Source of the DNA: Sulfuricella sp.
GTDB lineage: Bacteria > Pseudomonadota > Gammaproteobacteria > Burkholderiales > Sulfuricellaceae
NCBI GenBank assembly: GCA_023266195.1
Contig: JAHFRP010000003.1
Span: 224,101-288,100, forward strand
Length of the DNA stretch: 64,000 nucleotides
Direction of reading: 5' to 3'
Shown piece by piece: positions 5,235 to 53,693 of this stretch (the first letter of the stretch is position 1; each line of letters starts with the position of its first letter). The notes under the pieces were generated by a model. The model made no database searches, was not told the origin of the DNA, and saw only the letters and a list, made by a program, of their open reading frames with translations. Both the position numbers and the translations under genes were made by a program.

Positions 5235-5246
5235 GAAGGGACAACC

Positions 5247-39169: not shown

Positions 39170-39706
39170 ATGCCCGATGTCAGCCGCCGGGGCCGTATGT
39201 CCGAAATAAGAATACAGATCAACAGCATCTACAGGGAATACTACGACGAACTTTGCCGGTTCCTGTCCCATCGGCTGCGTAGCCGAGAGGAGGCGGCCGA
39301 GATCGCCCAGGAAGCCTTCACCCGCATGCTGGCGCTCGAAGACGGCTACCAGCTCCGCCATCCGCGCGGCTTTCTCTTCAGGACGGCGCTCAATCTGACG
39401 GTGGACTCTTTCAGGACGGACCGGCCGGGGGCGGAGCGAATGGACGGGGTTGACATGGCTGAGAACTTGCCTTCCGAAGCACCGGGACCGGAGTCGGTTG
39501 TCTACGCCCAGCAGCGGCTGGCGCTGTTGCGTGGAGCCATCGCCGAGCTCCCGCCCAAATGCCGGCACGCATTCATCAGGCACAAGTTCGAAAACCGGAG
39601 CTATGCCGAAATCGCCAGCGAGATGGGCATTTCGAAAAACATGGTGGAAAAGCACATCATCAAGGCCATCGCCTACTGCCGAGGGCGCCTGGAACGGGCA
39701 GACTGA
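39170..39706 (+). CDS. ECF-family RNA polymerase sigma factor (FecI-like)
   Basis: The 178-residue protein has region 2 (YYDELCRFLSHRLRSREEAAEIAQEAFTRML, residues ~19-49) and region 4 (LPPKCRHAFIRHKFENRSYAEIASEMGIS, with the HTH KNMVEKHIIKAI), in the style of FecI. FecI sigmas are released by a FecR signal and transcribe TonB-receptor genes. GGAAGG six bases upstream supports ATG 39170; an ATG at 39197 is the alternative. It is followed by fecR and an STN-domain receptor. Confidence 0.92.
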   Translation: MPDVSRRGRMSEIRIQINSIYREYYDELCRFLSHRLRSREEAAEIAQEAFTRMLALEDGYQLRHPRGFLFRTALNLTVDSFRTDRPGAERMDGVDMAENLPSEAPGPESVVYAQQRLALLRGAIAELPPKCRHAFIRHKFENRSYAEIASEMGISKNMVEKHIIKAIAYCRGRLERAD

Positions 39707-39785
39707 GCGATTCCCGGCGCCCCCCCTGCTTGACAACAAGCGCGAGTTGTCGGAAATTCGACGTCGGCTTGTGCCATTTCGCAAC

Positions 39786-40817
39786 ATGAAGGCAATGGGT
39801 TCCATGGCGGCGACGGACGATTTCGGTTTCCTGCAAGACCTCGCGACGAGGGAGCGCGCCGCGTACTGGTTTGCGCGGCTGCGCGCTGAGAACTGTTCCG
39901 ACAATGACAAGAAAGCATTCGAAGACTGGCTGTCAGAGAACGAGGCGCACCGCAGGGAATACGAGCAGTTCTGCCTGATGTGGGAAGAGCTGGACGGACT
40001 GAAGATCGCGCTTCCGCCAGCGATACAGACCGAGCGCACCCGGCCTCTGGGCTGGTTCCCCGCATTTGGGTGGAGGCACTGGGCCGCCGCCGTGCTGGTG
40101 GCGGCGGTCGGTATCGGCTGGCACGCCGCCCAGGGCCCGGCAGCGTATTCCTACGCTACCGCGAAGGGTGAGCAGAAAAGCGTCACGCTGCCGGATGGCT
40201 CGTTGGCGCAACTCAATACCGATACCCGGCTGACCGTGGAAATGTCGGCGGGCCTGCGACACGTGAAGGTGGAAAGGGGCGAAGCGCTGTTCACCGTAGC
40301 ACACGAGGAAGCGAGGCCGTTCGAGGTGCGGGCCGGCAGTGGCACCATTCGCGATATTGGCACCCGGTTCGACGTCTACCGAGACGGAGAGCGCGTTGTC
40401 GTGGCCGTGCTGGATGGCGAAGTCGAAATCACGCTGGGCGGGAAAGCCGACGATCCTGGCGTCAGCCGGGCTGTGCTCAAGGGGCAGCAAACCGCCTACT
40501 CCGACCGGAAGATATCCACCGTCAAGAGCGCCGACGAAAAAACAGTAACGGCCTGGCAGAATGGCAAACTGATTTTCGACGGCACCTCGCTTATGGACGT
40601 GGTTCGGGAACTGGGCCGGTATCACGACCGGAGGATCGTCATCGCCGACCCGAACCTGAACACCCTCAAGGTCAGCGGCGCATTCAATGCCTCCGACCTG
40701 GACGGCCTGCTTTGGGCGCTCCAGCAGGTGCTGCCAATCAAGGCGGAGCGCGCCGGCAACGCAACCGTCCTCTCCAGTCTCGACGAGCGGACCCCGCGCC
40801 GGCTCCAGACCTTCTGA
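39786..40817 (+). CDS. FecR-family anti-sigma factor / transmembrane signal protein
   Basis: The 343-residue protein has an N-terminal cytoplasmic domain with the paired pattern AAYWFARLRAENCSDNDKKAF...WLSENEAHRREYEQF (split here), one membrane segment (HWAAAVLVAAVGIGWHAA, residues ~97-114), and a periplasmic FecR domain (QKSVTLPDGSLAQLNTDT, VERGEALFTVAHEEARPFEV, IGTRFDVY). A C-terminal secretin/TonB-short-like domain (LSGAFN-type KVSGAFNASDL) follows. It passes the receptor signal to the sigma factor. The 79-base gap before it has no other gene. The start at 39786 is the longest; 39795 and 39804 are possible. Confidence 0.92.
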   Translation: MKAMGSMAATDDFGFLQDLATRERAAYWFARLRAENCSDNDKKAFEDWLSENEAHRREYEQFCLMWEELDGLKIALPPAIQTERTRPLGWFPAFGWRHWAAAVLVAAVGIGWHAAQGPAAYSYATAKGEQKSVTLPDGSLAQLNTDTRLTVEMSAGLRHVKVERGEALFTVAHEEARPFEVRAGSGTIRDIGTRFDVYRDGERVVVAVLDGEVEITLGGKADDPGVSRAVLKGQQTAYSDRKISTVKSADEKTVTAWQNGKLIFDGTSLMDVVRELGRYHDRRIVIADPNLNTLKVSGAFNASDLDGLLWALQQVLPIKAERAGNATVLSSLDERTPRRLQTF

Positions 40818-40970
40818 ACACAACCCTGTAACACCTCTCCAGGGGAAATCTCCCTTCCTCACTTCTTCCCGGTAAATATTTTTTTTGCCGGGACGTCAGG
40901 TTTCTTCTCCCGGATGCGTCTTATACAGGATAAGGGCACCTTTTTATCCACAACGCCCCAGGGAGAAAAA

Positions 40971-43376
40971 ATGAAAAAGAAGTCGAAAGGGGCGTTACGC
41001 CGGGCAACACGCAGGCTGATCCCGTCCTCCCGCACGCTCGGCATCTCCGCGCTGATGGCCGCGTCGCTGCTGGCAACGAATCCGGCCTTTGCCGACCCCG
41101 GCAAGGCGGCGGTGAATATCCCGCCCCAGGAGCTTTCCTCCGCGCTCAAGACCCTGGCCGGCCAGACCGATTCCCAACTGCTGTTTGCCACCGATGCCCT
41201 GCAAGGCATGCGCACCGAGGGCGTCAGCGGCAGTTACACGCCGGAGGAGGCGCTCAAGCGCCTGCTCAAGGGAACGAACCTGACTTATCGAACGACGGGC
41301 GCGAATACCTTTACCGTTCAGAGGGAGGACGAAAAAAAGCCAGAGGCCGTTGCCGGGGCACGGCGCTCCGAACTTCTGCCGGAAGTTGTGGTAACGGCCA
41401 CCAGGACCGAAAGACTGATCACCGAGGTTCCCGCCAGCGTTTCAGTCATCACGGCCAAGGATATTAAAAGCCAGCAAGTCGTGAAGGTTGAAGATTTACT
41501 GCGCAATGTGGAAGGCGTCGACGTCAAGTCAGAGGCCGGCGGGGGCGCCGGCATGGTCATGCTGCGCGGGATGGGCGGCAGCTATGCCGGCCAGACCACG
41601 CAGTTGCTGGTGGACGGCATGCCGGTGGAGCCGATGGTTCTTGCCCCCAAAGGAGCCGGGCTCGATTTCGCCGGCCTCGGTGAGATCGATCGCATCGAAG
41701 TGGTGCGCGGCCCCGCCTCCTCGCTCTACGGCCCGAATGCCGCCGGTGGCGTGATCAACGTCCTCACCAAACGCTGGACCGGAGAACCCGGCGGCGAAGC
41801 GGAGGTTGGCCTCGGCTCGCATAATGCGCAATCGGCGCGGGCAGTGGTAGGCGGGTCATCGGACAAGGTCGATTTCCGGCTTTCCGCCAGCAACTTTCAG
41901 ACCGACGGGTTCATTGCCGAACCGAAGCCCTATTTTTGGGGGCAACAGGATCTCGCAGGACGCGACTGGCGCGACCGCAAGTTCGGCGTCCAGCTCGGCC
42001 TCTATCCCGCGGAGAATCAGGCGATCACCTTCGGCGTCCGCAACTACGATATCGATTCCGCGTTTATCGGCGGCCGGCCCAATTACCGCTTTGGTCGAGA
42101 AGGCACCCTTTATGATCTCGGCTACAAGCTGGAGCTCGGAGCGCTCGGCGACCTGAAGTTCAAGTATCTGAGCGCGACCATCAAGGAAAACCTCAAATGG
42201 GATGGCCTGATGCTGGGAGACGGGACCGACTTTACCCGTTACATTACCGGGCAACGGGACGAATTTGCCGACACCTTCGAAGCTCAGGCCAATCTGCGCC
42301 TCACCCAGGGGAACCTCCTGACCCTCGGTCTTTCCCACACCGCCGGCAAGCAGAGAGAAACGGAGGATACGGCAGTGCCGCTGGCTTCCCCGCAGGGATG
42401 GGATTACTACGCCCGGAGCGATATCAGCACGAAAACCCGAATTGTCGGCCTGTATGCGCAGGACGAAATCCACGTTTCGGAAAACATGCTCCTGAATATC
42501 GGGGGCAGGTACGACCGTTACAGGCTCTACGACAACACGAGTTATTCCTGGGACAACTACGGCACCGATACCACCCGCCGGGACCCCGACTCGACTGACA
42601 GCGTCTTCAATCCCCGCCTCGGGTTGCGTTACAAGCTGGCGGAGCGCACATCCCTTTATGCGTCCTATGGCACGGCCTACCTGCCAGCCCTCAATGGGCT
42701 CCGCTACCGGAGCAATGCGACGTGCAACAGCCCAAACCTGAACGCCGAGCATTCCGCATCGACCGAAATCGGCCTTAACCATGAATGGGCCGGGCTGTCA
42801 GCCCGTGCGGCGCTTTTTCATACCGATTACCAGGACAAGATCGAGGCGCTGCAACGGGTAGGCTGCACTCAGTACGTGAACGTCTCGGCCGTAAAGGTGA
42901 ACGGTCTTGAGATCGCCTTGGAGGGCAAGACCGCATCGGCCTGGCGTCCGTATTTCAACTATACCTACAGCGACTCCAAGATCGACGGCAACCCTTCTCG
43001 CCCCGCTTCCGAGGGCAAGCGGCTCAATCTCGTCGCCAAACATAAACTCAGTCTTGGCGTCATCTACGCGCCTTCCGCGGACTGGATGGCGCGCCTTTCC
43101 GGCCGCTATGTCGGCGACAGGTACTTCGACGGAACGATGGAGAACAAGCCGGATGCCCTTGCCGCAGGCTATTTCGTCGCCGACCTGAAAGTCGGCAAAC
43201 GCATACCCCTAGGCGCGCTGGCGCGCGATGCGGAGCTGTCGTTAGCCGTCAACAACCTGTTTGACAAGGAATATGTCGAACAAAAGTGGCTCGTTCCGGT
43301 TGGAGCGGGCAAGGAAGCCTATCGCGCCTTTGGAGACGGTCGGAACTGGTGGCTTGGTCTCAATGTGCGCTTCTAG
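40971..43376 (+). CDS. TonB-dependent receptor with N-terminal STN signalling domain
   Basis: The 801-residue outer-membrane receptor has a long signal peptide ending near NPAFA. An STN domain (IPPQELSSALKTLAGQTD to NTFTVQ, residues ~47-112), a TonB box PEVVVTATRTE, a plug (VRGPASSLYGPNAAGG) and a barrel closing WWLGLNVRF follow. The STN domain is what contacts FecR, so this receptor both imports and senses its ligand. GGGAG lies eight bases before the ATG at 40971. The ligand is unknown. Because the peptide-maturation genes follow directly, the modified peptide or its metal complex is the leading candidate. Confidence 0.93.
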   Translation: MKKKSKGALRRATRRLIPSSRTLGISALMAASLLATNPAFADPGKAAVNIPPQELSSALKTLAGQTDSQLLFATDALQGMRTEGVSGSYTPEEALKRLLKGTNLTYRTTGANTFTVQREDEKKPEAVAGARRSELLPEVVVTATRTERLITEVPASVSVITAKDIKSQQVVKVEDLLRNVEGVDVKSEAGGGAGMVMLRGMGGSYAGQTTQLLVDGMPVEPMVLAPKGAGLDFAGLGEIDRIEVVRGPASSLYGPNAAGGVINVLTKRWTGEPGGEAEVGLGSHNAQSARAVVGGSSDKVDFRLSASNFQTDGFIAEPKPYFWGQQDLAGRDWRDRKFGVQLGLYPAENQAITFGVRNYDIDSAFIGGRPNYRFGREGTLYDLGYKLELGALGDLKFKYLSATIKENLKWDGLMLGDGTDFTRYITGQRDEFADTFEAQANLRLTQGNLLTLGLSHTAGKQRETEDTAVPLASPQGWDYYARSDISTKTRIVGLYAQDEIHVSENMLLNIGGRYDRYRLYDNTSYSWDNYGTDTTRRDPDSTDSVFNPRLGLRYKLAERTSLYASYGTAYLPALNGLRYRSNATCNSPNLNAEHSASTEIGLNHEWAGLSARAALFHTDYQDKIEALQRVGCTQYVNVSAVKVNGLEIALEGKTASAWRPYFNYTYSDSKIDGNPSRPASEGKRLNLVAKHKLSLGVIYAPSADWMARLSGRYVGDRYFDGTMENKPDALAAGYFVADLKVGKRIPLGALARDAELSLAVNNLFDKEYVEQKWLVPVGAGKEAYRAFGDGRNWWLGLNVRF

Positions 43377-43504
43377 TCTCCCCTCTCCCCTAGCCCTCTC
43401 CCTGCACCCGCAAGGAGTGTCCCCGCCGAGAGCGGCGGCAAAGCCGCTCGCTCTGGCGAGACGGGCGAGGGGGACGAGGTCTCGCTTCGCGAGTTTCACG
43501 CTAA
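43377..43504. repeat. CCCTCTCCC-type repeat with a 36-base shared tail
   Basis: Immediately after the receptor stop comes CTCCCCTCTCCCCTAGCCCT (from 43,377) and, at its right end, a 36-base tail at 43,469-43,504 (starting GGGGGACGAGGTCTCGCTTC). The tail is identical to 53,658-53,693 behind ntrC. It contains TCTCGCTTCGCGAG, able to form a small hairpin. It separates the receptor from the peptide gene and might limit read-through. Confidence 0.75.
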
Positions 43505-43561
43505 GGTCATGATTATTGCCCGGCCATTTCACAACGTAGTTATTACTCGAAAGGAAACACC

Positions 43562-43687
43562 ATGGAAATTGAAGAAATCGTTTTCGAATCTCTCGAAGGT
43601 TGCAACGAAGCGTTTGACGAAATGACCCTGTGCGCCTGCTGCGGCACCCAGGGCGGGCGGATGTGCGGTTGCGGGCCAAGGGTGTAG
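43562..43687 (+). CDS. Candidate RiPP precursor: 41-residue six-cysteine peptide
   Basis: A short gene with a strong ribosome site (AAGGA six bases before the ATG). The first ~22 residues are acidic and leader-like (MEIEEIVFESLEG with Cys14, then FDEM). The rest is a compact core with five cysteines, C24-A-C26-C27-G and, near the end, M34-C35-G-C37-G38-P-R-V, joined by TQGGR. There is no signal peptide. It lies 75 bases before three consecutive radical SAM/SPASM genes and an ABC exporter, the usual place for a ribosomally made, enzyme-modified peptide. I do not recognise the family. Thioether links from the cysteines are plausible but unproven. Confidence 0.82.
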   Translation: MEIEEIVFESLEGCNEAFDEMTLCACCGTQGGRMCGCGPRV

Positions 43688-43762
43688 GAACCTCAAGCAC
43701 CGATAGCAACAAGATGTAACCCAAAGAAATGGCGGGGCAACTTTTTTCAAAAAGGGCGCGGC

Positions 43763-45196
43763 ATGATAGAAGCAAGGGATTTCCACGTTTTTACCAAGGA
43801 CGGCCAGGCGTATCTGTTCCTGGCCCAGCCGGTCGCGGTGTTCAAGATCGACCAGGACACGCGCACGATACTGAAGCGGGCGGAGCGGGGCGAGCCCCTT
43901 TCGGGGGAGTTCGAGGAGCGGCGCTGGGAGGAGGCGCGCACCTTCATGGAAAACTATTGCCGCAAGGCGCCTGCCGCCAAGGTACTGCGCGCGCCGGAAG
44001 ATATCGGCGAAAAAGTCGCGGGGCTTTACCTGTTCATGTCCCAGGAGTGCAACCTGAAGTGTGCCTACTGCTACGGCGATGAGGGGGAATACGGCCAACG
44101 CGGCAGAATGAATGAGGCGACGCTGAACCGCACCTTCGATACATTCTTCAGCGGCGGCGAGGGCAAGCATTTCGTGACCTTCTTCGGCGGCGAGCCGCTG
44201 ATGAACTTCCGCACCATGAAGCGAACCGCCGAGTTGAGCGAGCGCTTCCGCGGGGAGGGCAAGGCGGACGTCTCCCTCGGCATCGTCACCAACGGCACTT
44301 TCCATAACGAGGAGATCGCGCAGTTTTTCCGCGACCACATCGACGATGTCACCTTCAGCCTGGACGGCCCGGAAGACCTCAACGACGGCCAGCGCACGAG
44401 CAAGTGCGGCGACAGCGTCTATTCCTCGGCGACCGAAAACATCCGCAAGTTCACGGTGGACGGGCGCTTCAACTGGGCGTTCCGCACCATCGTCACCCGC
44501 GCGGGCTACGACCGGGTGGCGGAAATCTACGACCACCTGGAATCCTTCAAACCGGGCGGCATCGGCGTGGTGAACGTGGATGTGCCGGAGGACAACCCGC
44601 TTTACCTCGACGACCACCAATACCGGCGCTTCATCGAGCAAATCGTCGAGATCAACCGCAAGGGGCTGCGCAGCTTCATCGAAGGCGACCAGCCGGTGGC
44701 CTTCGAATATCCCTTCTACATCCTGTTCTATTTCATTTCCCGCAGCCACGCCCTCTACCACTGCAACGCCGGCACCAACCTGCTGGCGGTGACCGCCGAG
44801 GGAGACGTTTATCCCTGTCACCGCTTCGTCGGCACGGATGAGTTCAAGATGGGCAACGTCGGCGATCCCGGCCTGCGGGAAAGCGAGCGCTACCGGGCGA
44901 TCCGGCAGCGTTTCGTCGATGCCACCGTGGACAACCGGGAAGGCTGCCGCGATTGCTGGGCGCGCTATCTCTGCGGCGGCTCCTGCGCCAAGTATTCCCA
45001 CGCCCGGTTCGGCGACATCGCCCCTCCGGTGGAGCGGCATTGCCTGTACATCAAGACGGTGATCGAGGAGATTCTGCCCGACATCGTCGCCATGGTGCAG
45101 TCGGCCGACACCCGGCAGGCGCTGATGGCCCGTCTGGGCACCGCGGTGTCCCGCCGCTACGGCAGCAAGGGAGTGGAAGCTGCCCGTGTTTCGTGA
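43763..45196 (+). CDS. Radical SAM/SPASM peptide maturase 1
   Basis: A 477-residue protein. Residues 1-~85 form a small domain resembling the N-terminal peptide-binding region of SCIFF-type maturases. The radical SAM cluster motif is CNLKCAYC (Cys96, 100, 103), followed by FFGGEPLMNF and TNGTF. The C-terminal SPASM domain has Cys334, Cys352 (VYPCHRF) and CRDCWARYLCGGSC (Cys395, 398, 404, 408), enough for two auxiliary [4Fe-4S] clusters. It is also reminiscent of QhpD, which makes Cys-to-Asp/Glu thioethers. The substrate is presumed to be the upstream peptide. The next gene overlaps its end. Confidence 0.92.
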   Translation: MIEARDFHVFTKDGQAYLFLAQPVAVFKIDQDTRTILKRAERGEPLSGEFEERRWEEARTFMENYCRKAPAAKVLRAPEDIGEKVAGLYLFMSQECNLKCAYCYGDEGEYGQRGRMNEATLNRTFDTFFSGGEGKHFVTFFGGEPLMNFRTMKRTAELSERFRGEGKADVSLGIVTNGTFHNEEIAQFFRDHIDDVTFSLDGPEDLNDGQRTSKCGDSVYSSATENIRKFTVDGRFNWAFRTIVTRAGYDRVAEIYDHLESFKPGGIGVVNVDVPEDNPLYLDDHQYRRFIEQIVEINRKGLRSFIEGDQPVAFEYPFYILFYFISRSHALYHCNAGTNLLAVTAEGDVYPCHRFVGTDEFKMGNVGDPGLRESERYRAIRQRFVDATVDNREGCRDCWARYLCGGSCAKYSHARFGDIAPPVERHCLYIKTVIEEILPDIVAMVQSADTRQALMARLGTAVSRRYGSKGVEAARVS

Positions 45197-46544
45197 TTTC
45201 CATTTGATCGAAGAGGACGGGACAGCGGTCCTGTTCTTCCCGACAAGCTACCGGCTGTTCCGGCTGCCTGCCGCGCGGGCGGACGGGGTGCGCGCCTATC
45301 TGCGCGGCAGCGGCCCCCTGCCGTCGGAGGTGGCGCCCGTCGTTCGGGAAGAGGAGGAGCGCGCCGCGGCCACGCCCGCGATCCGCAAGCCCTGGGGCGA
45401 GACCGACAGCCTCTGTCTCTACGTCGCCCACGATTGCAATCTCGATTGTGCCTACTGCTACAATGACCGCGGCCGCATCGCCAACCCCCGCATGATGATG
45501 GCGCCGGAAGTGGCCGAGGCCTCTTTCCGCCGCTTCTTCGTCGAGCCGGGCCGGCAATACGCCGTCGCTTTCTACGGCGGCGAGCCCCTGCTCAATTTCC
45601 GCACCGTCAGGAAGGCGGTGGAAATCGGCCGCCAGTTGGAGGCGGAGCGGGGGGTGAAGATTTCCTTCGGCGTCACCACCAACGGCACAGTGCTCAACCG
45701 GGAGATTCTCGCCTTTCTGGACGAACATTTCGCCTCGGTCACGGTGAGCCTGGACGGGCCGAAAGAGATCAACGACCGGTACCGGCGCGGCGCCGGAAGC
45801 GGCTCCTACGACCGGATCGTCGGCAACATCGGGCGGCTCCAGGCCCGCTGCAAGGCCAGGCTGACGATCAAGGGCACCCTCGGTGGCGACGCCGTCCCGT
45901 TTTACACCGAATCCCTCCGGCACCTGCGCGGCCTGGGCACGGCCGGCGCCATCCTGACGCCGGCCGGCACGCCGCCGGACAACCCCGCCGCCATCGGCAC
46001 CGGGCAGTTCGAAGACTTCGTCCGCCAGCATGAGGCGTTGAGCGCCGACGCGGTAGACCGCGCGCTGGAAGAAAACCCCACCGAGGAAGCCGTCAACGTT
46101 GTCGCCAACCTGCTCACCCGCCGCAAGCTTCGCCGCCACTGCAACGCCGGCCGGGATCTGGCGGTGACCGCCGATGGTTCCGTCTACGCTTGCCACGGCC
46201 TGGTGGGAGTGCCGCAGTTCTACATGGGCAAGGTGACCGAGACCGACAGCGAGGACTACCGCCGGGCGCGGTCTGTCTTTGCCGGCCTGGAGGTGGACAA
46301 CATCGGCGAATGCGCTACGTGCTGGGCACGGTATTTCTGCGGCGGCTCCTGCTATGCCCACGCTTATTTCGCCACTGGCAGCGTGTCCCGGCCCGATCCG
46401 CGCCATTGCCTGCTGACCAAGCGCTGCGCCGAGGCGGCGATCCGGCGCTTTCTCGCGGTGATGGGGCAGGCGGAAGCGCGACAGCGCTTGTACGCCAACG
46501 TCCGGAAATTCATCGGCACCGCCGGGGATGTTGCCCATGCTTAG
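45186..46544 (+). CDS. Radical SAM/SPASM peptide maturase 2
   Basis: The 452-residue protein is built like its upstream neighbour but clearly diverged. It has an N-terminal domain of ~75 residues, CNLDCAYC (Cys84, 88, 91), FYGGEPLLNF and VTTNGTVLN. Its SPASM region includes HCNAGRDLAVTADGSVYACH and CATCWARYFCGGSCYAHAYF. The GTG start overlaps the previous gene by eleven bases. Two similar maturases in tandem probably arose by duplication and may act on different cysteines, or as a complex. Confidence 0.92.
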   Translation: MFRDFHLIEEDGTAVLFFPTSYRLFRLPAARADGVRAYLRGSGPLPSEVAPVVREEEERAAATPAIRKPWGETDSLCLYVAHDCNLDCAYCYNDRGRIANPRMMMAPEVAEASFRRFFVEPGRQYAVAFYGGEPLLNFRTVRKAVEIGRQLEAERGVKISFGVTTNGTVLNREILAFLDEHFASVTVSLDGPKEINDRYRRGAGSGSYDRIVGNIGRLQARCKARLTIKGTLGGDAVPFYTESLRHLRGLGTAGAILTPAGTPPDNPAAIGTGQFEDFVRQHEALSADAVDRALEENPTEEAVNVVANLLTRRKLRRHCNAGRDLAVTADGSVYACHGLVGVPQFYMGKVTETDSEDYRRARSVFAGLEVDNIGECATCWARYFCGGSCYAHAYFATGSVSRPDPRHCLLTKRCAEAAIRRFLAVMGQAEARQRLYANVRKFIGTAGDVAHA

Positions 46545-47661
46545 GAATCTTTACCTGGTGATCGCCCAGGATTGCAATCTCGCCTGCAGCTACTGCTATG
46601 CCCAGGGCGGAGATTTCGGCCGGGGCGCCTCCCTGATGAAGCCGGAGACGATGCGCGCCGCCTTCGACCGGTTGTTGCCGCTGGCGGGCAAAACCCTGGC
46701 AGTTTCCTTCTTCGGCGGCGAGCCGTTGCTGAACTTCGAGCTGATGAAGGAGGCCGTGGCCTACGGGCGGCAGCTCGCGGCACAGCGGGATGTATCCCTG
46801 GTCTACTGTCTCACCACCAACGGCACCCTGCTCGACGACGAGCGGCTGGCGTTCCTCAAGGCACACCTGCGCCACATCGCCGTCAGCCTTGACGGGGGCG
46901 CCGCCGTCACCAACGCCGGCCGGCGGTTCAAGGATGGCGGCGGCGACGTCCACGGCACGGTGCTGGCGAATATCCGGCGCCTGCGGAAGGCGGGCATCCC
47001 CTTCGCCCTGCGGGGAACGGTGATGGAACAGCATGCCGCCGGCCTGGAAGATGCGGCACATCACCTCGACGGTCTCGGCGCCGTTTCCCTGCGCATCGCC
47101 CCGGCGGCCATGGCCACGGAATGGCGGGGCGAAGCCCTGCGCGCCTGGATGGCGGGCTACGGCCGGCTCAACCGCGCGTCCCTGGAAAGCATCCTGGCTG
47201 GGGAGGAGCCGGTGGTGGCGAATGAGCTTTGCAAGGTCGCCGCCCACCGGCTGCTCGGCGAGCGGCACCTTTATCCCTGCGCCGCGGGCGCGGGCGTCCT
47301 GGCGGTGGCGACGGACGGCAGCGTCTACCCCTGCGACCATTTCATCGGTGCTGACGCCTTCCGCATGGACAGCGTCCACGACCACGATTTTCCCAGCATG
47401 GCATTCCGCGAGGTCGCCGCGCGACTAAAGGACAATGCGGTGGATCGCCGCCCGAAGTGCGCCGGCTGCGACGTCCGCTACGACTGCGGCGGTGAATGCC
47501 CGGCCCAGTCGCTGCTGCGCCGCGGCGACATCGCCGAGCCGTCGGCCAGCCACTGCGCCTTGACCAAGAAAATCGCCAGGGAAACGGTGTCGCTCCTTGA
47601 CCATGCCGTGGCGGACGAGGCCAGGAAAGCGCGGTTGACGGCCTTTCTCGGGGACGGCTAA
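46537..47661 (+). CDS. Radical SAM/SPASM peptide maturase 3 (lacks the N-terminal domain)
   Basis: At 374 residues this is the shortest of the three. It starts almost at the cluster motif CNLACSYC (Cys13, 17, 20), so the ~80-residue N-terminal domain of the other two is absent. FFGGEPLLNFELM, LTTNGTLLDD, AVSLDGG and a SPASM domain with GVLAVATDGSVYPCDHF and CAGCDVRYDCGGECPAQ follow. GGGGA nine bases upstream favours ATG 46537 over ATG 46528. It overlaps the end of maturase 2. It may need the N-domain of a partner to hold the peptide. Confidence 0.9.
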   Translation: MLRNLYLVIAQDCNLACSYCYAQGGDFGRGASLMKPETMRAAFDRLLPLAGKTLAVSFFGGEPLLNFELMKEAVAYGRQLAAQRDVSLVYCLTTNGTLLDDERLAFLKAHLRHIAVSLDGGAAVTNAGRRFKDGGGDVHGTVLANIRRLRKAGIPFALRGTVMEQHAAGLEDAAHHLDGLGAVSLRIAPAAMATEWRGEALRAWMAGYGRLNRASLESILAGEEPVVANELCKVAAHRLLGERHLYPCAAGAGVLAVATDGSVYPCDHFIGADAFRMDSVHDHDFPSMAFREVAARLKDNAVDRRPKCAGCDVRYDCGGECPAQSLLRRGDIAEPSASHCALTKKIARETVSLLDHAVADEARKARLTAFLGDG

Positions 47662-47663
47662 CC

Positions 47664-48410
47664 GTGACTGCGGTGTTCGTCGACAACGTCGCGTTCGTCT
47701 ATCCATCCGGCGTAAAGGCGGTGGAAGGACTGTCGATGCGCGTCCGGCACGGGGAGGTATACGGACTGCTCGGCCTCAACGGGGCGGGCAAGACCTCGGT
47801 CATCAAGATGCTGGCGACGCTGCTGCGTCCGACCGCCGGCAACATCCGCATTCTCGGCCTGGACCCGCGGGAGAACCCGGCCGAGATCAAGCGGCGCATC
47901 GGCGTAGTGCCCCAGGAGAACAATCTCGACACCTATCTCGATGTGCGGCAGAACCTGATCTTCCATTGCCGCTATGCCGGCCTGGCAAAAACGGTCTATG
48001 CCCCGCGGGTGGATGAGTGGCTCGCTCTGCTCGGGCTGGAAGGGAAAGCGGCCGAATCGGTCTTGCGCCTGTCCGGCGGCACCAAGCGCAAGGCGATGCT
48101 GGCCAAGGCGTTTATCACCGGGCCCGAGCTGCTGATCCTGGACGAGCCCACCGCCGGGCTCGACCCCGATGTCCGTGCCCTGCTCTGGGACCGGGTCGGG
48201 GAATTCCGGCGCAACGGCGGCACGGTTTTTCTCTCCACCCACTATCTCGAAGAGGCGGAGCGGCTGTGCGACCGGGTCGGCATTCTCCATGGCGGCCGCC
48301 TGGTGGCGGAGGGGACGGCGGCGGAACTGGCGCACAAGGCCGGGCGAGACGCGACACAGCCGGGCGGGGTGGAGGCGGCGTTCAGGCGCGCGGTGGGAGG
48401 ATGCCAGTGA
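47664..48410 (+). CDS. ABC transporter ATP-binding protein (DrrA/NatA type)
   Basis: The 248-residue ATPase has Walker A GLNGAGKTSVIK, the Q-loop VVPQENNLDTYL, signature RLSGGTKRKAMLAKA and Walker B LLILDEPTAGLD, plus the H-loop STHYLEEAE. This class pairs with a separate ABC-2 permease, encoded immediately downstream. The GTG start is two bases after the maturase 3 stop. It most likely powers export of the matured peptide to the periplasm. Confidence 0.93.
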   Translation: MTAVFVDNVAFVYPSGVKAVEGLSMRVRHGEVYGLLGLNGAGKTSVIKMLATLLRPTAGNIRILGLDPRENPAEIKRRIGVVPQENNLDTYLDVRQNLIFHCRYAGLAKTVYAPRVDEWLALLGLEGKAAESVLRLSGGTKRKAMLAKAFITGPELLILDEPTAGLDPDVRALLWDRVGEFRRNGGTVFLSTHYLEEAERLCDRVGILHGGRLVAEGTAAELAHKAGRDATQPGGVEAAFRRAVGGCQ

Positions 48411-49165
48411 AATTTGTGCTCGCCCTGTTGCACCGGAACGCGACCGCGGACCTCGCCGCCGCCAAGCTCACCACCGTACGGATGCTGGTCCAGCCGGCAA
48501 TCTATCTTTTCGTGTTCGGCTATGTGGTGGGGGGGATGCTGCCCACCCAGGGCGGCGGTTATGCCGGAATCATGGCGCCGGGCATCGTCGCCATCTCCCT
48601 GATCACCGGCCCCTTCGTCAGCGTCGGCGGCGGCGTGATCTCGGGCTACTACTTTCGCACCATGGAGGAATGGCTGCTGGCGCCGGTTTCGCTGCGCGCC
48701 ATTCTGGCAGCGCTGGTGTTCGGCGGCCTCTGCTACGGACTCGCCGGCGGCGCCGTGGTGGCGGTGCTGGTGTGGGGGATTCTGGGGCTCGCGCCGCAGA
48801 ACGTCGGCTACATGGTTCTGACAGCCACGGCCGGCGCCCTGCTGTTCTCCCTTTTCACCCTGGTGCTGCTGCTGGTCCCCGAAACCCCCGACAAGGGGCA
48901 GGAGGTGTTCTCCTTCCTGATGATGCCGATGACCTTCTTCGGCTGCACCTTCTACTCCTATGACATGCTGGGCGCGCCCTTCAGCTACCTCGCCCTGCTG
49001 CTGCCCACCACCTACATCGCCGAAGGGCTGCGGGCAGCCTACAGCCCCGCTTCTCCCCACATGGAAGCAGGGGCGGTCCTGGCCGGGCTCTCGCTGGCGA
49101 CGGCGGTATTGATCCCCTTGGCCGACTGGGCGTTCCGAAGGCGGCTCAGGGATTTCACTTGGTGA
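48407..49165 (+). CDS. ABC-2 type transporter permease
   Basis: The 252-residue membrane protein has six hydrophobic segments and the ABC-2 signature region TMEEWLLAPVSLRAIL, FSFLMMPMTFFGCTFYSYD. The GTG at 48407 overlaps the ATPase stop (GTGA) and has GGGAGG six bases upstream. An ATG at 48401 touches that ribosome site and is less likely. It forms the membrane half of the exporter. There is no peptidase domain, so leader removal, if any, needs another protease; none is seen in this locus. Confidence 0.9.
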   Translation: MKFVLALLHRNATADLAAAKLTTVRMLVQPAIYLFVFGYVVGGMLPTQGGGYAGIMAPGIVAISLITGPFVSVGGGVISGYYFRTMEEWLLAPVSLRAILAALVFGGLCYGLAGGAVVAVLVWGILGLAPQNVGYMVLTATAGALLFSLFTLVLLLVPETPDKGQEVFSFLMMPMTFFGCTFYSYDMLGAPFSYLALLLPTTYIAEGLRAAYSPASPHMEAGAVLAGLSLATAVLIPLADWAFRRRLRDFTW

Positions 49166-49173
49166 GGGTGAGC

Positions 49174-51081
49174 ATGATCGCGGCGCCCCTGTGCGCCTGG
49201 GTGCTGATGTTGCCGCTCGCCGCGATGGCGGAGGCGGCAGGAAAGGAGGACACCAATATCACCGTCATCACAGCCCAGGATGTGGAAAGGGAAAAGCCCG
49301 CCGATCTGATCGAGCTGCTGCGCTCGAAGGTCGGCCTGGACGACAGCGGCGGCACGATCACGATGCGCGGCGTGCGCGGCGTGGCCATTTACGTCGATGG
49401 CTTCGCGTCGTCCCTGACGGATTTGAACCAGATCAAGCCGGACCAGGTGGAGCGTATCGAGATCCTGCGCGGAGCCGCGTCGGCGCGCTTCGGCGCCGAT
49501 GCCATGGGCGGCGCCATCGCCGTCGCCACGCGCAAGACCGGCGACAAACCCCGGTTCGAGTGGGTGCAGGGTCTCAACTCGGCCGGCAGCTGGTATACCA
49601 GGCTGAACGGAGAGGGTCTCGCAGCGCCGGCAAGCATCGGCATGACGGGGGAACGCCAGGTTGTCCACGGCCACAAGCGCGTGCCGTTCGCACCCTACCC
49701 CTCCCAGGTCTCGGTTGAGAACGAGCGAACGGAGAAAACCACGCGGGAAGCCAAAATCGGCGTCAAGAATGAAGCCGGGGAGGCGCAGCTCCAGCTCAAG
49801 CGCTTCGAGTCGCTGTCCTTCTACGGCCGGCCGAACTGGTGGGAAGATTATGGCGCGGACACGCTGCGTTTCACCTCTGCTTTCAAGGCTGCGCCGACCG
49901 CCGAATTGAACCTGTCGCTTGGCTATGAAACCTACCGGGACAAGGGACTGAAGGATCAGGGGACGGGGGCGGACGCGGCCGGGCTCGCGCCGAACCGCAC
50001 CCTGTTCAGCGACGGCGAGAAGCTGGAGATGGAAGTGGCGGCGGCGGCAAAAGGGAAAGCCGGCACGTTGCGCCTCGGCTTGCGCGGCAGCCGTAGCGCC
50101 GACGCCTACGAAACCCGCGATTATCAGAGCGGCGCGACGGATTTCCTGCTGCGCGCCAAGATGGCGAACACGGCGGCCTACTTGCTTTACGAGGCGACTC
50201 CGTGGAACGGCCTGGCCGCAGAGCTGAGCGGTCGGTACGACCACTATCGCTACTTCGACACCACCATCTTCAACAGCGGCTCCCTGGTGAAAAACACCAC
50301 CGGCGATGAGACCGCCAAGCACGCCTTCAACCCGAAGGCGAGCTTGCGCTGGGCCGCGGGAAACACCACGCTCAACGGTTCGGTAGGTACCGGTTTCGTC
50401 CCCCCCACCCCGGACCAGCTCTATTACTCGGACGTCGGGCCCGCCTCCCAATTCCTGGCAAATCCGGTTCTGAAACCCCAGCGCTCCCTGACCTGGGATC
50501 TGGGTGTCAGGAGGAAGCTTGGAGGAGGCGCCGAGGCGGGCATCACGCTCTTTCACACTCTATGGCGCGACAAGATCGGGGTGATGATCACCGATTACGG
50601 CATTCCCCTGAAACAGCAGTTCCAGAACATCGGCCAGGCCGAATCCAAGGGGTTGGAGCTGGAGCTTGGCCGGAAGAGCGAGTCCGGCTGGTCGGCCTTC
50701 TTCAACTACACCTACACGCGGACGCAAGTCGCGGAAAACCTGGCCAGTCCCGCCCTGGTCGGCAAGGAGCTGCCAGACATGCCGCGGCACAAGTTCAACC
50801 TCGGCCTGGGCTACGGGGGGCCGGGAGGGGCCACCGCCAAGGCGCTGTTGCGGTATGTCGGGACTTCGTTTGCGGACGAGAACAACACCATAACGGACAG
50901 CAAAGGTTATCGCTGGGAAAGGGAGTCCTATCACGTGGTCGATCTTTCCCTCACCAAACGCTTCAAGGGCGCCGATCTTACCGTCGCCGTGGACAACTTG
51001 TTCGACAAGAACTACATGTCGGGCTTTTTCTGGCGGGCCGAGGGAAGAGTCTGCCGGGCCGAGGTGGTGTTCAGATTCTGA
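49174..51081 (+). CDS. TonB-dependent receptor without STN domain
   Basis: The 635-residue protein has a signal peptide (MIAAPLCAWVLMLPLAAMAEA). It goes almost straight into the plug (ITVITAQDVEREKPADLIELL, MRGVRGVAIYVDGF, EILRGAASARFGADAMGG) and a barrel ending CRAEVVFRF. It has no STN domain, so unlike the receptor at 40,971 it should transport without signalling. The ATG at 49174 follows GAGGG by five bases. The gene begins eight bases after the permease stop, tying it to the peptide operon. Confidence 0.92.
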   Translation: MIAAPLCAWVLMLPLAAMAEAAGKEDTNITVITAQDVEREKPADLIELLRSKVGLDDSGGTITMRGVRGVAIYVDGFASSLTDLNQIKPDQVERIEILRGAASARFGADAMGGAIAVATRKTGDKPRFEWVQGLNSAGSWYTRLNGEGLAAPASIGMTGERQVVHGHKRVPFAPYPSQVSVENERTEKTTREAKIGVKNEAGEAQLQLKRFESLSFYGRPNWWEDYGADTLRFTSAFKAAPTAELNLSLGYETYRDKGLKDQGTGADAAGLAPNRTLFSDGEKLEMEVAAAAKGKAGTLRLGLRGSRSADAYETRDYQSGATDFLLRAKMANTAAYLLYEATPWNGLAAELSGRYDHYRYFDTTIFNSGSLVKNTTGDETAKHAFNPKASLRWAAGNTTLNGSVGTGFVPPTPDQLYYSDVGPASQFLANPVLKPQRSLTWDLGVRRKLGGGAEAGITLFHTLWRDKIGVMITDYGIPLKQQFQNIGQAESKGLELELGRKSESGWSAFFNYTYTRTQVAENLASPALVGKELPDMPRHKFNLGLGYGGPGGATAKALLRYVGTSFADENNTITDSKGYRWERESYHVVDLSLTKRFKGADLTVAVDNLFDKNYMSGFFWRAEGRVCRAEVVFRF

Positions 51082-51108
51082 GATGTGTTGAACCTGGAAA
51101 AAGCATTT

Positions 51109-51240
51109 AGCCACAGAGAACACAGAGTTCGCGGAGGAAAAACAAGGGGTTGCCGGCCTAACTGTTTTCACCCATCAGGTGAATGCGAAAATGCCCAAGA
51201 ATCCCGCTTCAACTCTGTGTTCTCTGTGATCTCTGTGGCT
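51109..51240. repeat. Inverted repeat of the 'CCACAGAGAACACAGAG' type
   Basis: AGCCACAGAGAACACAGAGT (51,109-51,128) is matched in reverse by ACTCTGTGTTCTCTGTG (51,212-51,228) and CTCTGTGGCT (51,231-51,240), with ~80 bases between. This is a widespread intergenic repeat in bacteria. It occupies the 200-base gap between the receptor and the propeller gene, so the latter may have its own promoter. Confidence 0.8.
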
Positions 51241-51281
51241 TGAATTGAGGTTTTAAGGTTGAATTGAGAGGAGGTAAAAAA

Positions 51282-52646
51282 ATGAAATTGCATGGATTGT
51301 CCTGGTTGTTGCTGGCGGGTTTGGTGGGGTTTGTCCCGGTGGAGGCGGAAGCCTGCCGCCCATTCGGCTCCTACACCTTCGTCGAGGATAAGGCTGGGGG
51401 TATCTGGTTCACCGAGGGGGACAACAACGCCATTTCACGTCTGGCACCGGATGGCACGGTCAAGGCATTCCGGCTGCCGACTCCCAATGCCGAGCCCTCT
51501 TCCCTGGCGCTCGACCGGCGCGGCAACGTCTGGTTCGTGGAGAGCGACGGCGCCAAGATCGGGCGGCTGGGGCGGGACGGCAAGATCGTCGAATATGCCA
51601 CGGCAGATGGCCACCCGGTGCTGGTGGCGGTGGACTCCAAAGGCGAGGGCTGGTTCACACAGATGGCCGGGGATCACGCGGCCGACCAGGGGGCGGAGCA
51701 TGCGGGCCACGGCCGGATGTGGGTATCGAAGGTAGGCCGGATCGCGGCGGGACGGGTGACCGGCTATCCTCTCGACGAGGGCTGGCCGACCTCCATCGCC
51801 ATCGACCGCAGCGACCGGGTATGGGTGACGGTGCTGGTGCGCGGCGACACCGATGGCCGGAACGACCCTCCGGTGGGCAAGCTGGTGCGGATTGGACGCG
51901 ACGGCCGCTGGACCCCGGTTTACCGCTGGGAGAACAGTTGTCCGAGCAATCTGCTGGCGCTGCCGGGAGGAGGTCTGATCATCTCCGACCATTGCCGCGG
52001 CGTCCTCGGGCGGGTGGATCGAGATGGGAAGTTGACGGAAACGGCTCTGCCGCCCAAAACCACGATCCAACAAATGTCCCTGGCCCGGGACGGCACCCTG
52101 TGGTTCACCACCGCGGAGGGCGGCAGGATCGGCCGCTTCACGCGCAAAGGAGAAATGACCTACGCCGACCGGCCGGAGAATGGCGACGAGGCCTTTGCCA
52201 TCTTGGCGACACGCAGCGGCGACGTGATTTTTTCCGAGTTTTACAACTACAACGTCAACCGGCTGACGAAGAATGGCGAGTTCGTCGAACATCTGGTCAA
52301 CCTGAACGAGCGGCACGACGGCAGGGAGGCGCGTGAGGGCGAGGTGTGTCTGGTCAAGTTTGCGGCGCGCATCGTCGACAAACAGGAGATGGATCGTCGG
52401 CGCGCCGAGGAAGTGCGCCAAGGGCGACTCAAGCCGACAGCGGACGGCGCGGAAAAGCTTGCAGCGCAGAAGTGCCTGAGTTGCCACGATGCCCGGCGCC
52501 TCCTGTTGTCGCGACGCAGCGACTGGTCGCCGAGCATCGGCCGCATGCAGGAATACATGCGGGTGCGCAATGTGCCGCAGTTGACCGATGGGGAAAAACA
52601 AATCCTGGCGCGATATTTCAACACCCATTACGGGCTCAGCCAGTAA
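51282..52646 (+). CDS. Secreted Vgb-like beta-propeller fused to a cytochrome c domain
   Basis: The 454-residue protein has a signal peptide (MKLHGLSWLLLAGLVGFVPVEAEA) and about six propeller repeats of the virginiamycin B lyase/SMP-30-like kind (GGIWFTEGDNNAISRLAPDG, GNVWFVESDGAKIGRLGRDG, GTLWFTTAEGGRIGRFTRKG). From residue ~385 a C-terminal domain carries the heme motif CLSCH and a later Met-rich helix (IGRMQEYMRVR). A periplasmic redox role is likely. It has a perfect AGGAGG ribosome site. The family name does not imply antibiotic breakdown. Linkage to the peptide genes suggests a function in processing, loading or using the peptide. Confidence 0.85.
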   Translation: MKLHGLSWLLLAGLVGFVPVEAEACRPFGSYTFVEDKAGGIWFTEGDNNAISRLAPDGTVKAFRLPTPNAEPSSLALDRRGNVWFVESDGAKIGRLGRDGKIVEYATADGHPVLVAVDSKGEGWFTQMAGDHAADQGAEHAGHGRMWVSKVGRIAAGRVTGYPLDEGWPTSIAIDRSDRVWVTVLVRGDTDGRNDPPVGKLVRIGRDGRWTPVYRWENSCPSNLLALPGGGLIISDHCRGVLGRVDRDGKLTETALPPKTTIQQMSLARDGTLWFTTAEGGRIGRFTRKGEMTYADRPENGDEAFAILATRSGDVIFSEFYNYNVNRLTKNGEFVEHLVNLNERHDGREAREGEVCLVKFAARIVDKQEMDRRRAEEVRQGRLKPTADGAEKLAAQKCLSCHDARRLLLSRRSDWSPSIGRMQEYMRVRNVPQLTDGEKQILARYFNTHYGLSQ

Positions 52647-52654
52647 AAAAGCGA

Positions 52655-53137
52655 TTATCGGGTGCCGCCGGGGCTGCCCCACAGCACCGGCCAGACCCTG
52701 GCGGCGAACATTGCCAGGGACAGCCACGCCAGAATCGCCCCCGCCACCACCAGGCCATGCCATCCGGCGAAATAGCCCGCAACGAAGCTCGCCGCCCCGG
52801 CGTGAACCAATCCCATCTGCAACCACGGCCAGGCGCCTTCGCGGATCGGGTTGCCGGTGAAGCGCGGCAGCATGTGGCCGCCAATCCCGTAGATCATCAT
52901 CAGCAGGAAGCCGAGGGTGAACAGGTGGAGGAACGCGGGGCGGGACGCGGAATCGCTGAGCAGGCTGCCGTTGATCGGCAGGCCCAGGCCGGCGAGCATC
53001 AGGTAAACCTGCGCGGCGACGATGAAGCAGCGGTTGTCGCGGGAGAAGGTCATGCCCATCTGCGCCATCGCGGCCTCGGCGCCGAGCCGCGCTTCGGCCG
53101 GGCCGCCGGCGGTAGGCTGCGGTGCCGCCGTGCTCAT
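52655..53137 (-). CDS. Membrane protein resembling NnrS / heme-copper oxidase subunit I
   Basis: The 160-residue protein has four to five membrane helices and conserved-looking histidines in FLHLFTLGFLLMMIYGIGGH and ML-PRF. The HxxxxG-x-MxxMxxGxxxHxLPRFxG pattern is shared with its upstream neighbour, so the two are a duplicated pair. This resembles NnrS and CcoN helices that bind heme. I cannot name a function with certainty. Its ATG overlaps the neighbour's stop (ATGA). Confidence 0.6.
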   Translation of the reverse strand: MSTAAPQPTAGGPAEARLGAEAAMAQMGMTFSRDNRCFIVAAQVYLMLAGLGLPINGSLLSDSASRPAFLHLFTLGFLLMMIYGIGGHMLPRFTGNPIREGAWPWLQMGLVHAGAASFVAGYFAGWHGLVVAGAILAWLSLAMFAARVWPVLWGSPGGTR

Positions 53138-53523
53138 TTTTTCCTGCCGACGACGGTAAGGATCATGTTGAGGCCGAACAGGACGATCGCGCCGTAACTG
53201 AGCACCCCGCCGGCCAACACCAGCGAGTCGCGCCAGCCGAGCCAGCCGGCGACCATCAGCGGCAGGCCGGCGTTGGCGAGATAAAGCTGCCAGTCGGCCA
53301 TGCGCTCGGAATACAGGGGGAAGCCGCCGAAACGGGGCAGCACGTGCAGGGCGATGCCGTAGACCATCATCAGGATGAAGCCGAGCAGCATGATGTGGCC
53401 GTGGGCGCGCGGCACGTTGCCGGGGAGCAGGCCGGGGTCGATCAGCCGGGTGATCGCGATCAGCCCGCCGAGCAGGCCGTAGACCAGGGCGATGGAAACG
53501 AACAGGCGGTTGCGCTTGTGCAT
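53134..53523 (-). CDS. Small membrane protein resembling heme-copper oxidase subunit I
   Basis: A 129-residue, four-helix membrane protein with AHGHIMLLGFILMMVYGIAL and HVLPRFGG, aligning with the same block in the downstream protein. The two histidines could bind heme. It is the first gene of the pair. A perfect 19-base hairpin lies 47 bases upstream of its start codon and could mark the end of ntrC transcripts coming from the same direction. Confidence 0.6.
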   Translation of the reverse strand: MHKRNRLFVSIALVYGLLGGLIAITRLIDPGLLPGNVPRAHGHIMLLGFILMMVYGIALHVLPRFGGFPLYSERMADWQLYLANAGLPLMVAGWLGWRDSLVLAGGVLSYGAIVLFGLNMILTVVGRKK

Positions 53524-53623: not shown

Positions 53624-53693
53624 CCCTCTCCCCTAGCCCTCTCCCGCAAGCGGGCGCGGGGGACGAGGTCTCGCTTCGCGAGTTTCACGCTAA
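53624..53693. repeat. CCCTCTCCC-type repeat, second copy with the 36-base tail
   Basis: CCCTCTCCCCTAGCCCTCTC from 53,624 leads through a small CCCGCAAGCGGG hairpin into the 36-base tail at 53,658-53,693. The tail is base-for-base identical to 43,469-43,504. It lies just beyond the ntrC stop on the minus strand. Confidence 0.8.

What the first reader, a model, noticed from the sequence alone, without database searches (positions are those of the whole stretch)
39170..52646. A putative RiPP system with three radical SAM maturases inside a sigma/anti-sigma/TonB uptake circuit
Seen: FecI-like sigma, FecR, STN-domain TonB receptor, 41-residue six-Cys peptide, three tandem radical SAM/SPASM genes, ABC-2 exporter, second TonB receptor, propeller-cytochrome, all on one strand over 13.5 kb. 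Known: methanobactin loci combine MbnI/R/T regulators and receptor with a Cys peptide, but use MbnB/MbnC rather than radical SAM enzymes. Inference: this locus makes, exports, senses and retrieves a modified peptide, possibly a metal carrier. I know of no described system with this exact set.
Basis: partly seen in the sequence, partly recalled or inferred. Interest (0 to 1): 0.95.

Follow-up and report, generated by a model that had tools for sequence, protein, structure and literature searches.

The report
Radical-SAM peptide with sensing-and-retrieval circuit
An apparent relative of the bacterium Sulfuricella carries, in one stretch, genes for a tiny cysteine-rich peptide, three radical enzymes that likely modify it, an exporter that would likely secrete it, and receptors with a regulator that would likely sense it and take it back, probably as a metal carrier; the same gene set recurs in scattered bacteria, including relatives of known methane eaters.

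Summary
The window (39197-52646, +) encodes an ECF sigma factor, FecR, an STN-type TonB receptor, a 41-aa six-Cys peptide, three radical SAM/SPASM maturases, an ABC-2 pair, a second TonB receptor and a propeller-cytochrome. The set travels together: in 15 of 15 loci where the stretch is held, a short Cys peptide sits between a TonB receptor and the maturase; the ABC pair and propeller-cytochrome follow in 14 of 14. Eight of the 15 have three maturases. Seven, six of them in the order of the methanotroph Methylobacter marinus, have one maturase and a peptide with 2-4 Cys. STN and sigma/FecR agree in 15 of 15 (13 both, 2 neither, in the DNA held). The peptide shows coding-type conservation. No title or abstract listed by ten open-licence searches describes the set.

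Best reading: a ribosomal peptide, cross-linked by radical SAM enzymes, is exported, sensed by a FecIRA-type circuit and retrieved, most likely as a metallophore. Modification, export and metal binding are inferred. A Trp/Tyr-derived cofactor is unlikely for the three-maturase form. Boldest reading: the one-maturase form makes the unidentified copper compound of methanotrophs lacking methanobactin genes.

The parts
39197..39706 (+). ECF sigma factor, FecI-like (169 aa)
   Evidence: Sigma70_r2 and r4_2; start chosen by L010 homologue
39795..40817 (+). FecR-type anti-sigma/transducer
   Evidence: FecR, DUF4880, FecR_C
40971..43376 (+). TBDR1: TonB-dependent receptor with STN signalling domain
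   Evidence: STN, Plug, barrel
43562..43687 (+). Precursor peptide, 41 aa, six Cys
   Evidence: Homologues; alignments A1 and A5; third-codon-position excess
43763..45196 (+). rS1: radical SAM/SPASM maturase with an N-terminal domain like that of CteB
45186..46544 (+). rS2: radical SAM/SPASM maturase with N-terminal extension
   Evidence: Radical_SAM; seven SPASM-spaced Cys; own group on the tree
46537..47661 (+). rS3: radical SAM/SPASM maturase without the N-terminal domain
   Evidence: Radical_SAM + SPASM; family matches begin at residues 3-16 of the protein; own group on the tree
47664..48410 (+). ABC exporter ATPase, DrrA-like
   Evidence: ABC_tran; nearest NCBIfam drrA, below cut-off
48401..49165 (+). 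ABC-2 membrane subunit
   Evidence: ABC2_membrane
49174..51081 (+). TBDR2: TonB-dependent receptor without STN (start uncertain, 49159 or 49174)
   Evidence: Plug + barrel, no STN
51282..52646 (+). Propeller-cytochrome: virginiamycin-B-lyase-like beta-propeller with a signal-peptide-like start and a C-terminal CxxCH domain

Best explanation
The locus encodes a 41-aa Cys-rich peptide and three radical SAM/SPASM enzymes that likely cross-link it, after which it would likely be exported by the ABC-2 transporter, sensed outside by the STN receptor with FecR and the sigma factor, and retrieved by the TonB receptors, most likely as a metal carrier (metallophore). Shown: gene content and order, peptide conservation, intact radical SAM and SPASM Cys motifs, and co-occurrence across 17 loci (two of them fragments that do not reach the peptide). 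Inferred: (1) rS1 and rS2 bind the conserved N-terminal leader (E-[IVM]-x-[FI]) through their N-terminal domains, while rS3, which lacks that domain, acts on the already bound or cross-linked peptide; (2) they form thioether or other radical cross-links in the core, which in all four peptide types keeps a Cys, a Gly and a second Cys (preceded by Met in 14 of 15 loci), leaving donors that hold a metal; (3) a protease encoded elsewhere removes the leader, since none is among the 11 genes; (4) the loaded product binds TBDR1, whose STN domain signals through FecR to release the sigma factor, a positive loop that reports that the product has come back loaded; (5) TBDR2 (or TBDR1 where TBDR2 is absent) imports it; (6) the periplasmic propeller-cytochrome docks it and releases the metal by electron transfer. 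Copper is the best single guess for the metal in the methanotroph form; for the window it is open.
For: Peptide between TBDR1 and the first maturase in 15 of 15 loci with the stretch held. ABC pair and propeller-cytochrome in 14 of 14 loci with the downstream stretch held; TBDR2 in 13 of 14. STN in 13 of 15 TBDR1, and sigma plus FecR in the same 13; the two without STN (L014, L018) are the two without sigma/FecR in the DNA held. TBDR2 has no STN in 7 of 7 scanned, which fits a division into sensor and importer. Negative control: of 69 more distant radical SAM loci kept from the same scan, 0 hold a relative of TBDR1, TBDR2, the ABC membrane subunit, the propeller-cytochrome or the peptide at 40 bits or more. 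The radical SAM and SPASM Cys are invariant in 25 aligned maturases. The rS1 model matches CteB, whose entry title names thioether bond formation, over residues 3-445. C26, G32 and C35 are invariant across the four peptide types. MbnB reaches its cut-off in 0 of 13 carrier genomes, so by that model no methanobactin pathway is seen in them.
Against: None of the 11 genes is metal-specific by Pfam (no P-type ATPase, metal chaperone or binding protein). No convincing Fur box: the best site in three upstream stretches has 7 of 19 mismatches. Thioether formation would use up Cys thiols that might hold a metal. No protease is in the set. I found no expression, mass or metal data for any member. M. 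album, the host with published copper-chelator work, is known here only through its maturase; its peptide was not seen, and other copper routes are described for it (CorA, passages of PMC3912023; an mbnT gene, passage of PMC12997803). Below-cut-off MbnB-like matches exist in 8 of 13 carriers. I found no metal-release homologue of the propeller-cytochrome. Several loci are close relatives, so the counts are not all independent.
Confidence: 0.6

Rival explanations
1. The peptide is a cross-linked, non-diffusing partner subunit of the propeller-cytochrome, as the gamma subunit is in quinohemoprotein amine dehydrogenase (QHNDH): made by radical SAM chemistry in the cytoplasm, exported to the periplasm, and assembled with a propeller and a heme domain into a redox enzyme whose substrate the TonB receptors import.
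For: rS1 scores against QhpD (TIGR03906, 188 bits). The C-terminal heme domain of the propeller-cytochrome matches the QHNDH alpha subunit in a profile search (1jju_A, E 1.6e-7) and PF09098 at E<=10 in 13 of 14 members, best 0.0015. An ABC exporter is also used for QhpC (passages of PMC7876137).
Against: Scores to QhpD are far below its cut-off (453 bits) and below those to other maturase models. The QHNDH match does not appear with the single heme-domain sequence (best E 0.65, unrelated). The quinone cofactor needs Trp (PMC7876137 passages): the last 28 residues lack Trp in 12 of 13 three-maturase-type peptides. The propeller matches Vgb lyases best. None of the 11 genes is annotated as a flavin monooxygenase or subtilisin-like protease as in the qhp operon. 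A FecIRA circuit normally senses external ligands.
Confidence: 0.15
2. The product is an antibacterial or signalling peptide; the ABC pair exports it, and the receptors give uptake into competitors, self-recognition or feedback.
For: Sactipeptides and ranthipeptides made by SPASM enzymes are often antibacterial or signals (recalled); DrrAB-like exporters also confer self-protection (recalled; ATPase nearest drrA).
Against: The core is strongly conserved: 17 invariant columns in 13 three-maturase-type peptides, unlike peptides in an arms race. No gene of the set is annotated as immunity; two TonB receptors, a FecIRA set and a propeller-cytochrome are hard to explain.
Confidence: 0.12
3. The product is a small diffusible redox cofactor (like PQQ or mycofactocin) that is excreted and recaptured by TonB receptors, with the propeller-cytochrome as its user.
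For: PQQ is imported by a TonB receptor, PqqU (abstract of PMC12124388 seen in the listing), and is peptide-derived through a radical SAM enzyme (recalled); a propeller-cytochrome lies in 14 of 14 loci whose downstream stretch is held.
Against: PQQ and mycofactocin need Tyr (recalled); the last 28 residues have no Tyr in 13 of 13 three-maturase-type peptides. In the one-maturase form Tyr is present in the L017/L020/L106 peptides, N-terminal to the Cys part, but absent in L107-L109 and L018. The conserved core residues are Cys and Gly.
Confidence: 0.08

Closest known systems
Methanobactin (mbn) operons of Methylosinus, group I
   Same: Small Cys peptide, TonB receptor with N-terminal signalling domain, FecR-like MbnR and ECF sigma MbnI in one locus (passages of PMC3621798)
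   Different: MbnB/MbnC rather than radical SAM, MATE exporter (same passages). Here radical SAM/SPASM, ABC-2 exporter, second receptor, propeller-cytochrome. MbnB over its cut-off in 0 of 13 carrier genomes
SCIFF/CteB and PapB-type thioether peptides, Nif11-like maturases
   Same: Nearest enzyme families by profile, CteB nearest by fold; Cys-rich small substrate
   Different: The window maturases score below the curated cut-off of every named peptide-maturase model in the rows shown (best 25 of 63-65 per protein); peptide matches no Pfam/NCBIfam model; TonB/FecIRA wiring
Quinohemoprotein amine dehydrogenase biogenesis (QhpC/QhpD)
   Same: Radical SAM maturation of a small Cys protein, ABC export, heme domain resemblance in a profile search
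   Different: Trp needed for the quinone is missing; no flavin monooxygenase or dedicated protease in the set; propeller resembles Vgb lyase; external-ligand sensing
FecIRA-type cell-surface signalling
   Same: ECF sigma, FecR, STN receptor; STN and sigma/FecR agree in 15 of 15 loci (13 both, 2 neither)
   Different: Ligand is probably the cell's own ribosomal peptide rather than ferric citrate (inference)

Membership tests
RiPP locus with radical SAM/SPASM maturases | Short translated precursor conserved next to the maturase | tested here: met
   15 of 15 loci with the stretch held; coding-type substitution pattern in the three-maturase type
RiPP locus with radical SAM/SPASM maturases | CxxxCxxC plus SPASM auxiliary-cluster Cys | tested here: met
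   All three window enzymes; invariant in 25 aligned
RiPP locus with radical SAM/SPASM maturases | Peptide chemically modified by the enzymes | not testable with these tools
   Needs mass spectrometry
Methanobactin | MbnB/MbnC maturation pair | tested here: not met
   MbnB model TIGR04159 over cut-off in 0 of 13 carrier genomes incl. the window's; below-cut-off matches in 8 of 13. MbnC was not searched
Methanobactin | FecIRA-type set with signalling receptor (group I only) | tested here: met
   Window; other loci; description in PMC3621798 passages
Methanobactin | Copper binding | not testable with these tools
   Needs an experiment
SCIFF / PapB thioether peptides | Maturase above the curated cut-off | tested here: not met
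   rS1-rS3 score 178-224 bits vs 425 (SCIFF) and 191-210 vs 340 (PapB)
SCIFF / PapB thioether peptides | Thioether bonds in the product | not testable with these tools
   Needs mass spectrometry/NMR
QHNDH (qhp operon) | QhpD above cut-off | tested here: not met
   165-188 bits vs 453
QHNDH (qhp operon) | Trp in the small subunit for the quinone cofactor | tested here: not met
   No Trp in the window peptide; 1 of 13 aligned three-maturase-type peptides has one, at its end
FecIRA-type surface signalling | ECF sigma + FecR + STN receptor together | tested here: met
   Window and 12 of 14 other loci; the 2 exceptions (L014, L018) lack STN, sigma and FecR in the DNA held
Virginiamycin B lyase | Catalytic His (His270, as named in the 2z2p title) in the propeller | tested here: inconclusive
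   Judged by conservation only: no propeller His is invariant or nearly invariant in 14 aligned members; the only such His is in the heme motif. No residue-by-residue superposition was made

The most novel reading that the evidence does not exclude
These loci define the first class of radical-SAM-made metallophores: ribosomal peptides cross-linked by SPASM enzymes, secreted, sensed and retrieved. The one-maturase form is the missing biosynthetic locus of the copper compound reported from Methylomicrobium album and other methanotrophs that have no methanobactin genes, and the propeller-cytochrome is its periplasmic metal-release enzyme.
Probability: 0.22. Interest if true: 0.92.

Novelty: new variant of a known kind. 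Interest (0 to 1): 0.8.

Why it matters
Ribosomal metallophores that are secreted and retrieved are known to me mainly from methanobactin (recalled). A second, chemically unrelated route based on radical SAM enzymes would show that this strategy arose more than once.

Tried and rejected
Trp/Tyr-derived cofactor: rejected as main reading because the three-maturase-type peptides lack Tyr (13 of 13) and nearly always Trp (12 of 13) in their last 28 residues. Virginiamycin lyase activity: no propeller His conserved in 14 members, an indirect test. QHNDH-like enzyme: kept as a rival; the heme-domain match holds for the profile but not for the single sequence. Recent triplication of the maturases: not supported; rS1, rS2, rS3 and the one-maturase group are each one group on the tree (rows under 350 aa and all of L016 and L020 were left out). 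Archaeal proteins P0083 and P0093 fall near rS1 and the one-maturase group with weak support (80/87), so the wider clade is not closed. Fur regulation: no convincing box. Plasmid-borne copies: none at E<=1e-50. A back-translated core pattern gave 2 of 398 genomes, own genome included; the second, G398, was not followed. Fold searches put CteB and Vgb lyase first; VIA-align looks only at Foldseek's own matches, so absence there says nothing. Papers: ten searches; two searches found no paper with all terms; the other listings are partly capped, and no listed title or abstract describes this gene set. Only open-licence full text was searched. Papers seen in passages: PMC3621798, PMC3912023, PMC12997803, PMC7876137, PMC13274458, PMC8262016; the last two gave nothing on this set.

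Full report
WHAT IS THERE. The window lies in a 3.12-Mb genome (contig C5) that shares its genus label with G001. G001's hit has the same contig number and coordinates as L010, a record titled Sulfuricella sp. STA_41, so the genome is most likely a Sulfuricella relative (inference). From 39197 to 52646 on the + strand lie, in order: ECF sigma, FecR, TBDR1 with STN, a 41-aa peptide, three radical SAM/SPASM enzymes (rS1, rS2, rS3), ABC ATPase, ABC-2 membrane subunit, TBDR2 without STN, and a propeller-cytochrome with a signal-peptide-like start. From rS1 to TBDR2 the genes overlap or nearly touch.

THE PEPTIDE. MEIEEIVFESLEGCNEAFDEMTLCACCGTQGGRMCGCGPRV. It has 12 database homologues. In 13 aligned members 17 columns are invariant, among them four Cys (26, 27, 35, 37) in CCG-x-QGG-x-x-CGCGP. 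The locus alignment adds variants: L015 reads CCS and lacks the Pro, L014 reads CRCGP; the four Cys stay. Across 8 loci, nucleotide differences by codon position are 212/173/560 summed over all 28 pairs, the mark of a translated, conserved peptide. No Pfam or NCBIfam model matches.

THE SET TRAVELS TOGETHER. One scan of a genome collection kept 80 of 331 loci. L010-L016 are close rS1 orthologues (60-92% identity); L017-L020 are more distant but carry the system. With loci from the genome search I compared 17 loci, duplicates of one genome counted once (L111 = L012; L096 = L016; others likewise): ten of three-maturase type (window, L010-L016, L110, and fragment L019) and seven of one-maturase type (L017, L018, L020, L106-L109). 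L016 and L019 start inside rS1, so 15 show the upstream part; of these, L014 ends inside rS3, so 14 show the downstream part. Peptide and TBDR1: 15 of 15. ABC pair: 14 of 14 (in L017 the membrane-subunit gene is in two pieces with another ORF between). Propeller-cytochrome: 14 of 14. TBDR2: 13 of 14 (not L011). Sigma plus FecR: 13 of 15 (not in the DNA held for L014 and L018, whose contigs run on beyond it); in L017 they lie on opposite flanks of the set. The downstream order differs: propeller-cytochrome last in three-maturase loci, directly after the maturase in one-maturase loci. L020 and L106 have identical peptides, as have L107 and L108, so these counts are not all independent.

AN INTERNAL CONTROL. 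TBDR1 has an STN domain in 13 of 15 loci, the same 13 that have sigma and FecR (window; others). TBDR2 has no STN in 7 of 7 scanned. This is what a sensor/importer division predicts. Negative control: the 69 further radical SAM loci kept from the same scan (L021-L089; 44 of at least 15 kb) hold 0 relatives of TBDR1, TBDR2, propeller-cytochrome, ABC membrane subunit, sigma or peptide at 40 bits or more against the window's proteins; 9 hold a related ABC ATPase and 1 a FecR.

ONE PEPTIDE FAMILY, FOUR FORMS. Three-maturase loci: 41 aa with 5-6 Cys in 8 of 8. One-maturase loci: 36 aa with MCSNPGPMCPPG (L017, L020, L106; 2 Cys); 35 aa with MCC-x-GPMCD-x-DC (L107-L109; 4 Cys); 42 aa as first listed, with CGGGGRMCPAGQC (L018; 3 Cys). 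Aligned together (12 sequences, identical copies left out), M1, E5, C26, G32 and C35 are invariant and L11 and M34 nearly so; three database homologues have Ile or Gln at 34. More maturases go with more Cys, which suggests a division of the cross-links among enzymes (inference).

DISTRIBUTION. Sporadic, own genome counted where drawn: 3 of 100 relatives, 2 of 22 in the family, 3 of 369 in the class, 6 of 121 in the order of G833, 1 of 398 in a phylum draw, the window's own genome. Queries and E-value limits differ between these calls. No plasmid match. Six of the seven one-maturase loci (not L018) are in genomes listed in the order of G833, the Methylobacter marinus genome; L020's record is titled Methyloversatilis, so either its title or its placement is off.

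MECHANISM. The most economical reading is a secreted, sensed and retrieved modified peptide, most likely a metallophore. Steps and rivals are set out above. The metal is unknown. The copper hint rests on the methanotroph hosts of the one-maturase form. MbnB is over its cut-off in 0 of 13 carrier genomes, with weaker matches in 8. PMC3621798 (passages) finds no mbn operon in M. album BG8 and others and says a chalkophore there would come from enzymes not closely resembling MbnB and MbnC; PMC3912023 (passages) says methanobactins of much lower copper affinity were isolated from M. album BG8 and M. capsulatus, and argues for CorA as a copper route; Kang-Yun et al. [quoted passage not shown] The maturase P0151 is named for Methylomicrobium album, strain not told; its neighbouring DNA was not seen. 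Its 77% relative in G930 (L109) lies beside a peptide and the full set.

STATUS. Real, conserved, not described in any listed title or abstract of the searches made; function inferred. New variant of a known kind: RiPP plus TonB retrieval is known from methanobactin, radical SAM RiPPs are known, and the union with a FecIRA circuit and a propeller-cytochrome was not found described.

Noticed in passing
window 36126-37430 (-): ISL3-family transposase about 1.8 kb upstream of the locus; would fit sporadic spread.
   Followed up: no
window 52655-53523 (-): Two small proteins directly after the locus with weak NnrS-like and COX1-like matches, below cut-off.
   Followed up: no
window 43462-43504 and 53651-53693: 43-bp repeat, 98% identical, once just upstream of the peptide gene and once just beyond the locus.
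   Followed up: no
L017:15677-18012: ABC membrane-subunit gene in two pieces with a 448-aa ORF on the other strand between them, possibly an insertion element; an ORF of the same length lies at 5169-6515.
   Followed up: no
L020:9995-11388: Maturase reading frame broken by a frameshift in this MAG; the close relative L106 is intact.
   Followed up: partly
G833:C1:1472429-1473019: Weak MbnB-like match (56 bits, cut-off 325) about 14 kb from the one-maturase locus of Methylobacter marinus.
   Followed up: no
P0130, P0133, P0134, P0137, P0138 (protein ids): Peptide homologues with N-terminal extensions; in P0130 the leader-like stretch is repeated. Start sites may be mis-called.
   Followed up: no
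P0083, P0093 (protein ids): Maturases named for Methanothrix and Methanotrichaceae, the first called a SCIFF maturase, group near rS1 and the one-maturase enzymes with weak support; an archaeal relative system may exist.
   Followed up: no
L019:144-4520: Deltaproteobacteria-titled fragment with rS2, rS3, propeller-cytochrome and the start of TBDR2 but no ABC genes between them.
   Followed up: partly
G398:C11:694647-694666 (L091): Only other genome in a 398-genome phylum draw with the back-translated core pattern; may be chance.
   Followed up: no
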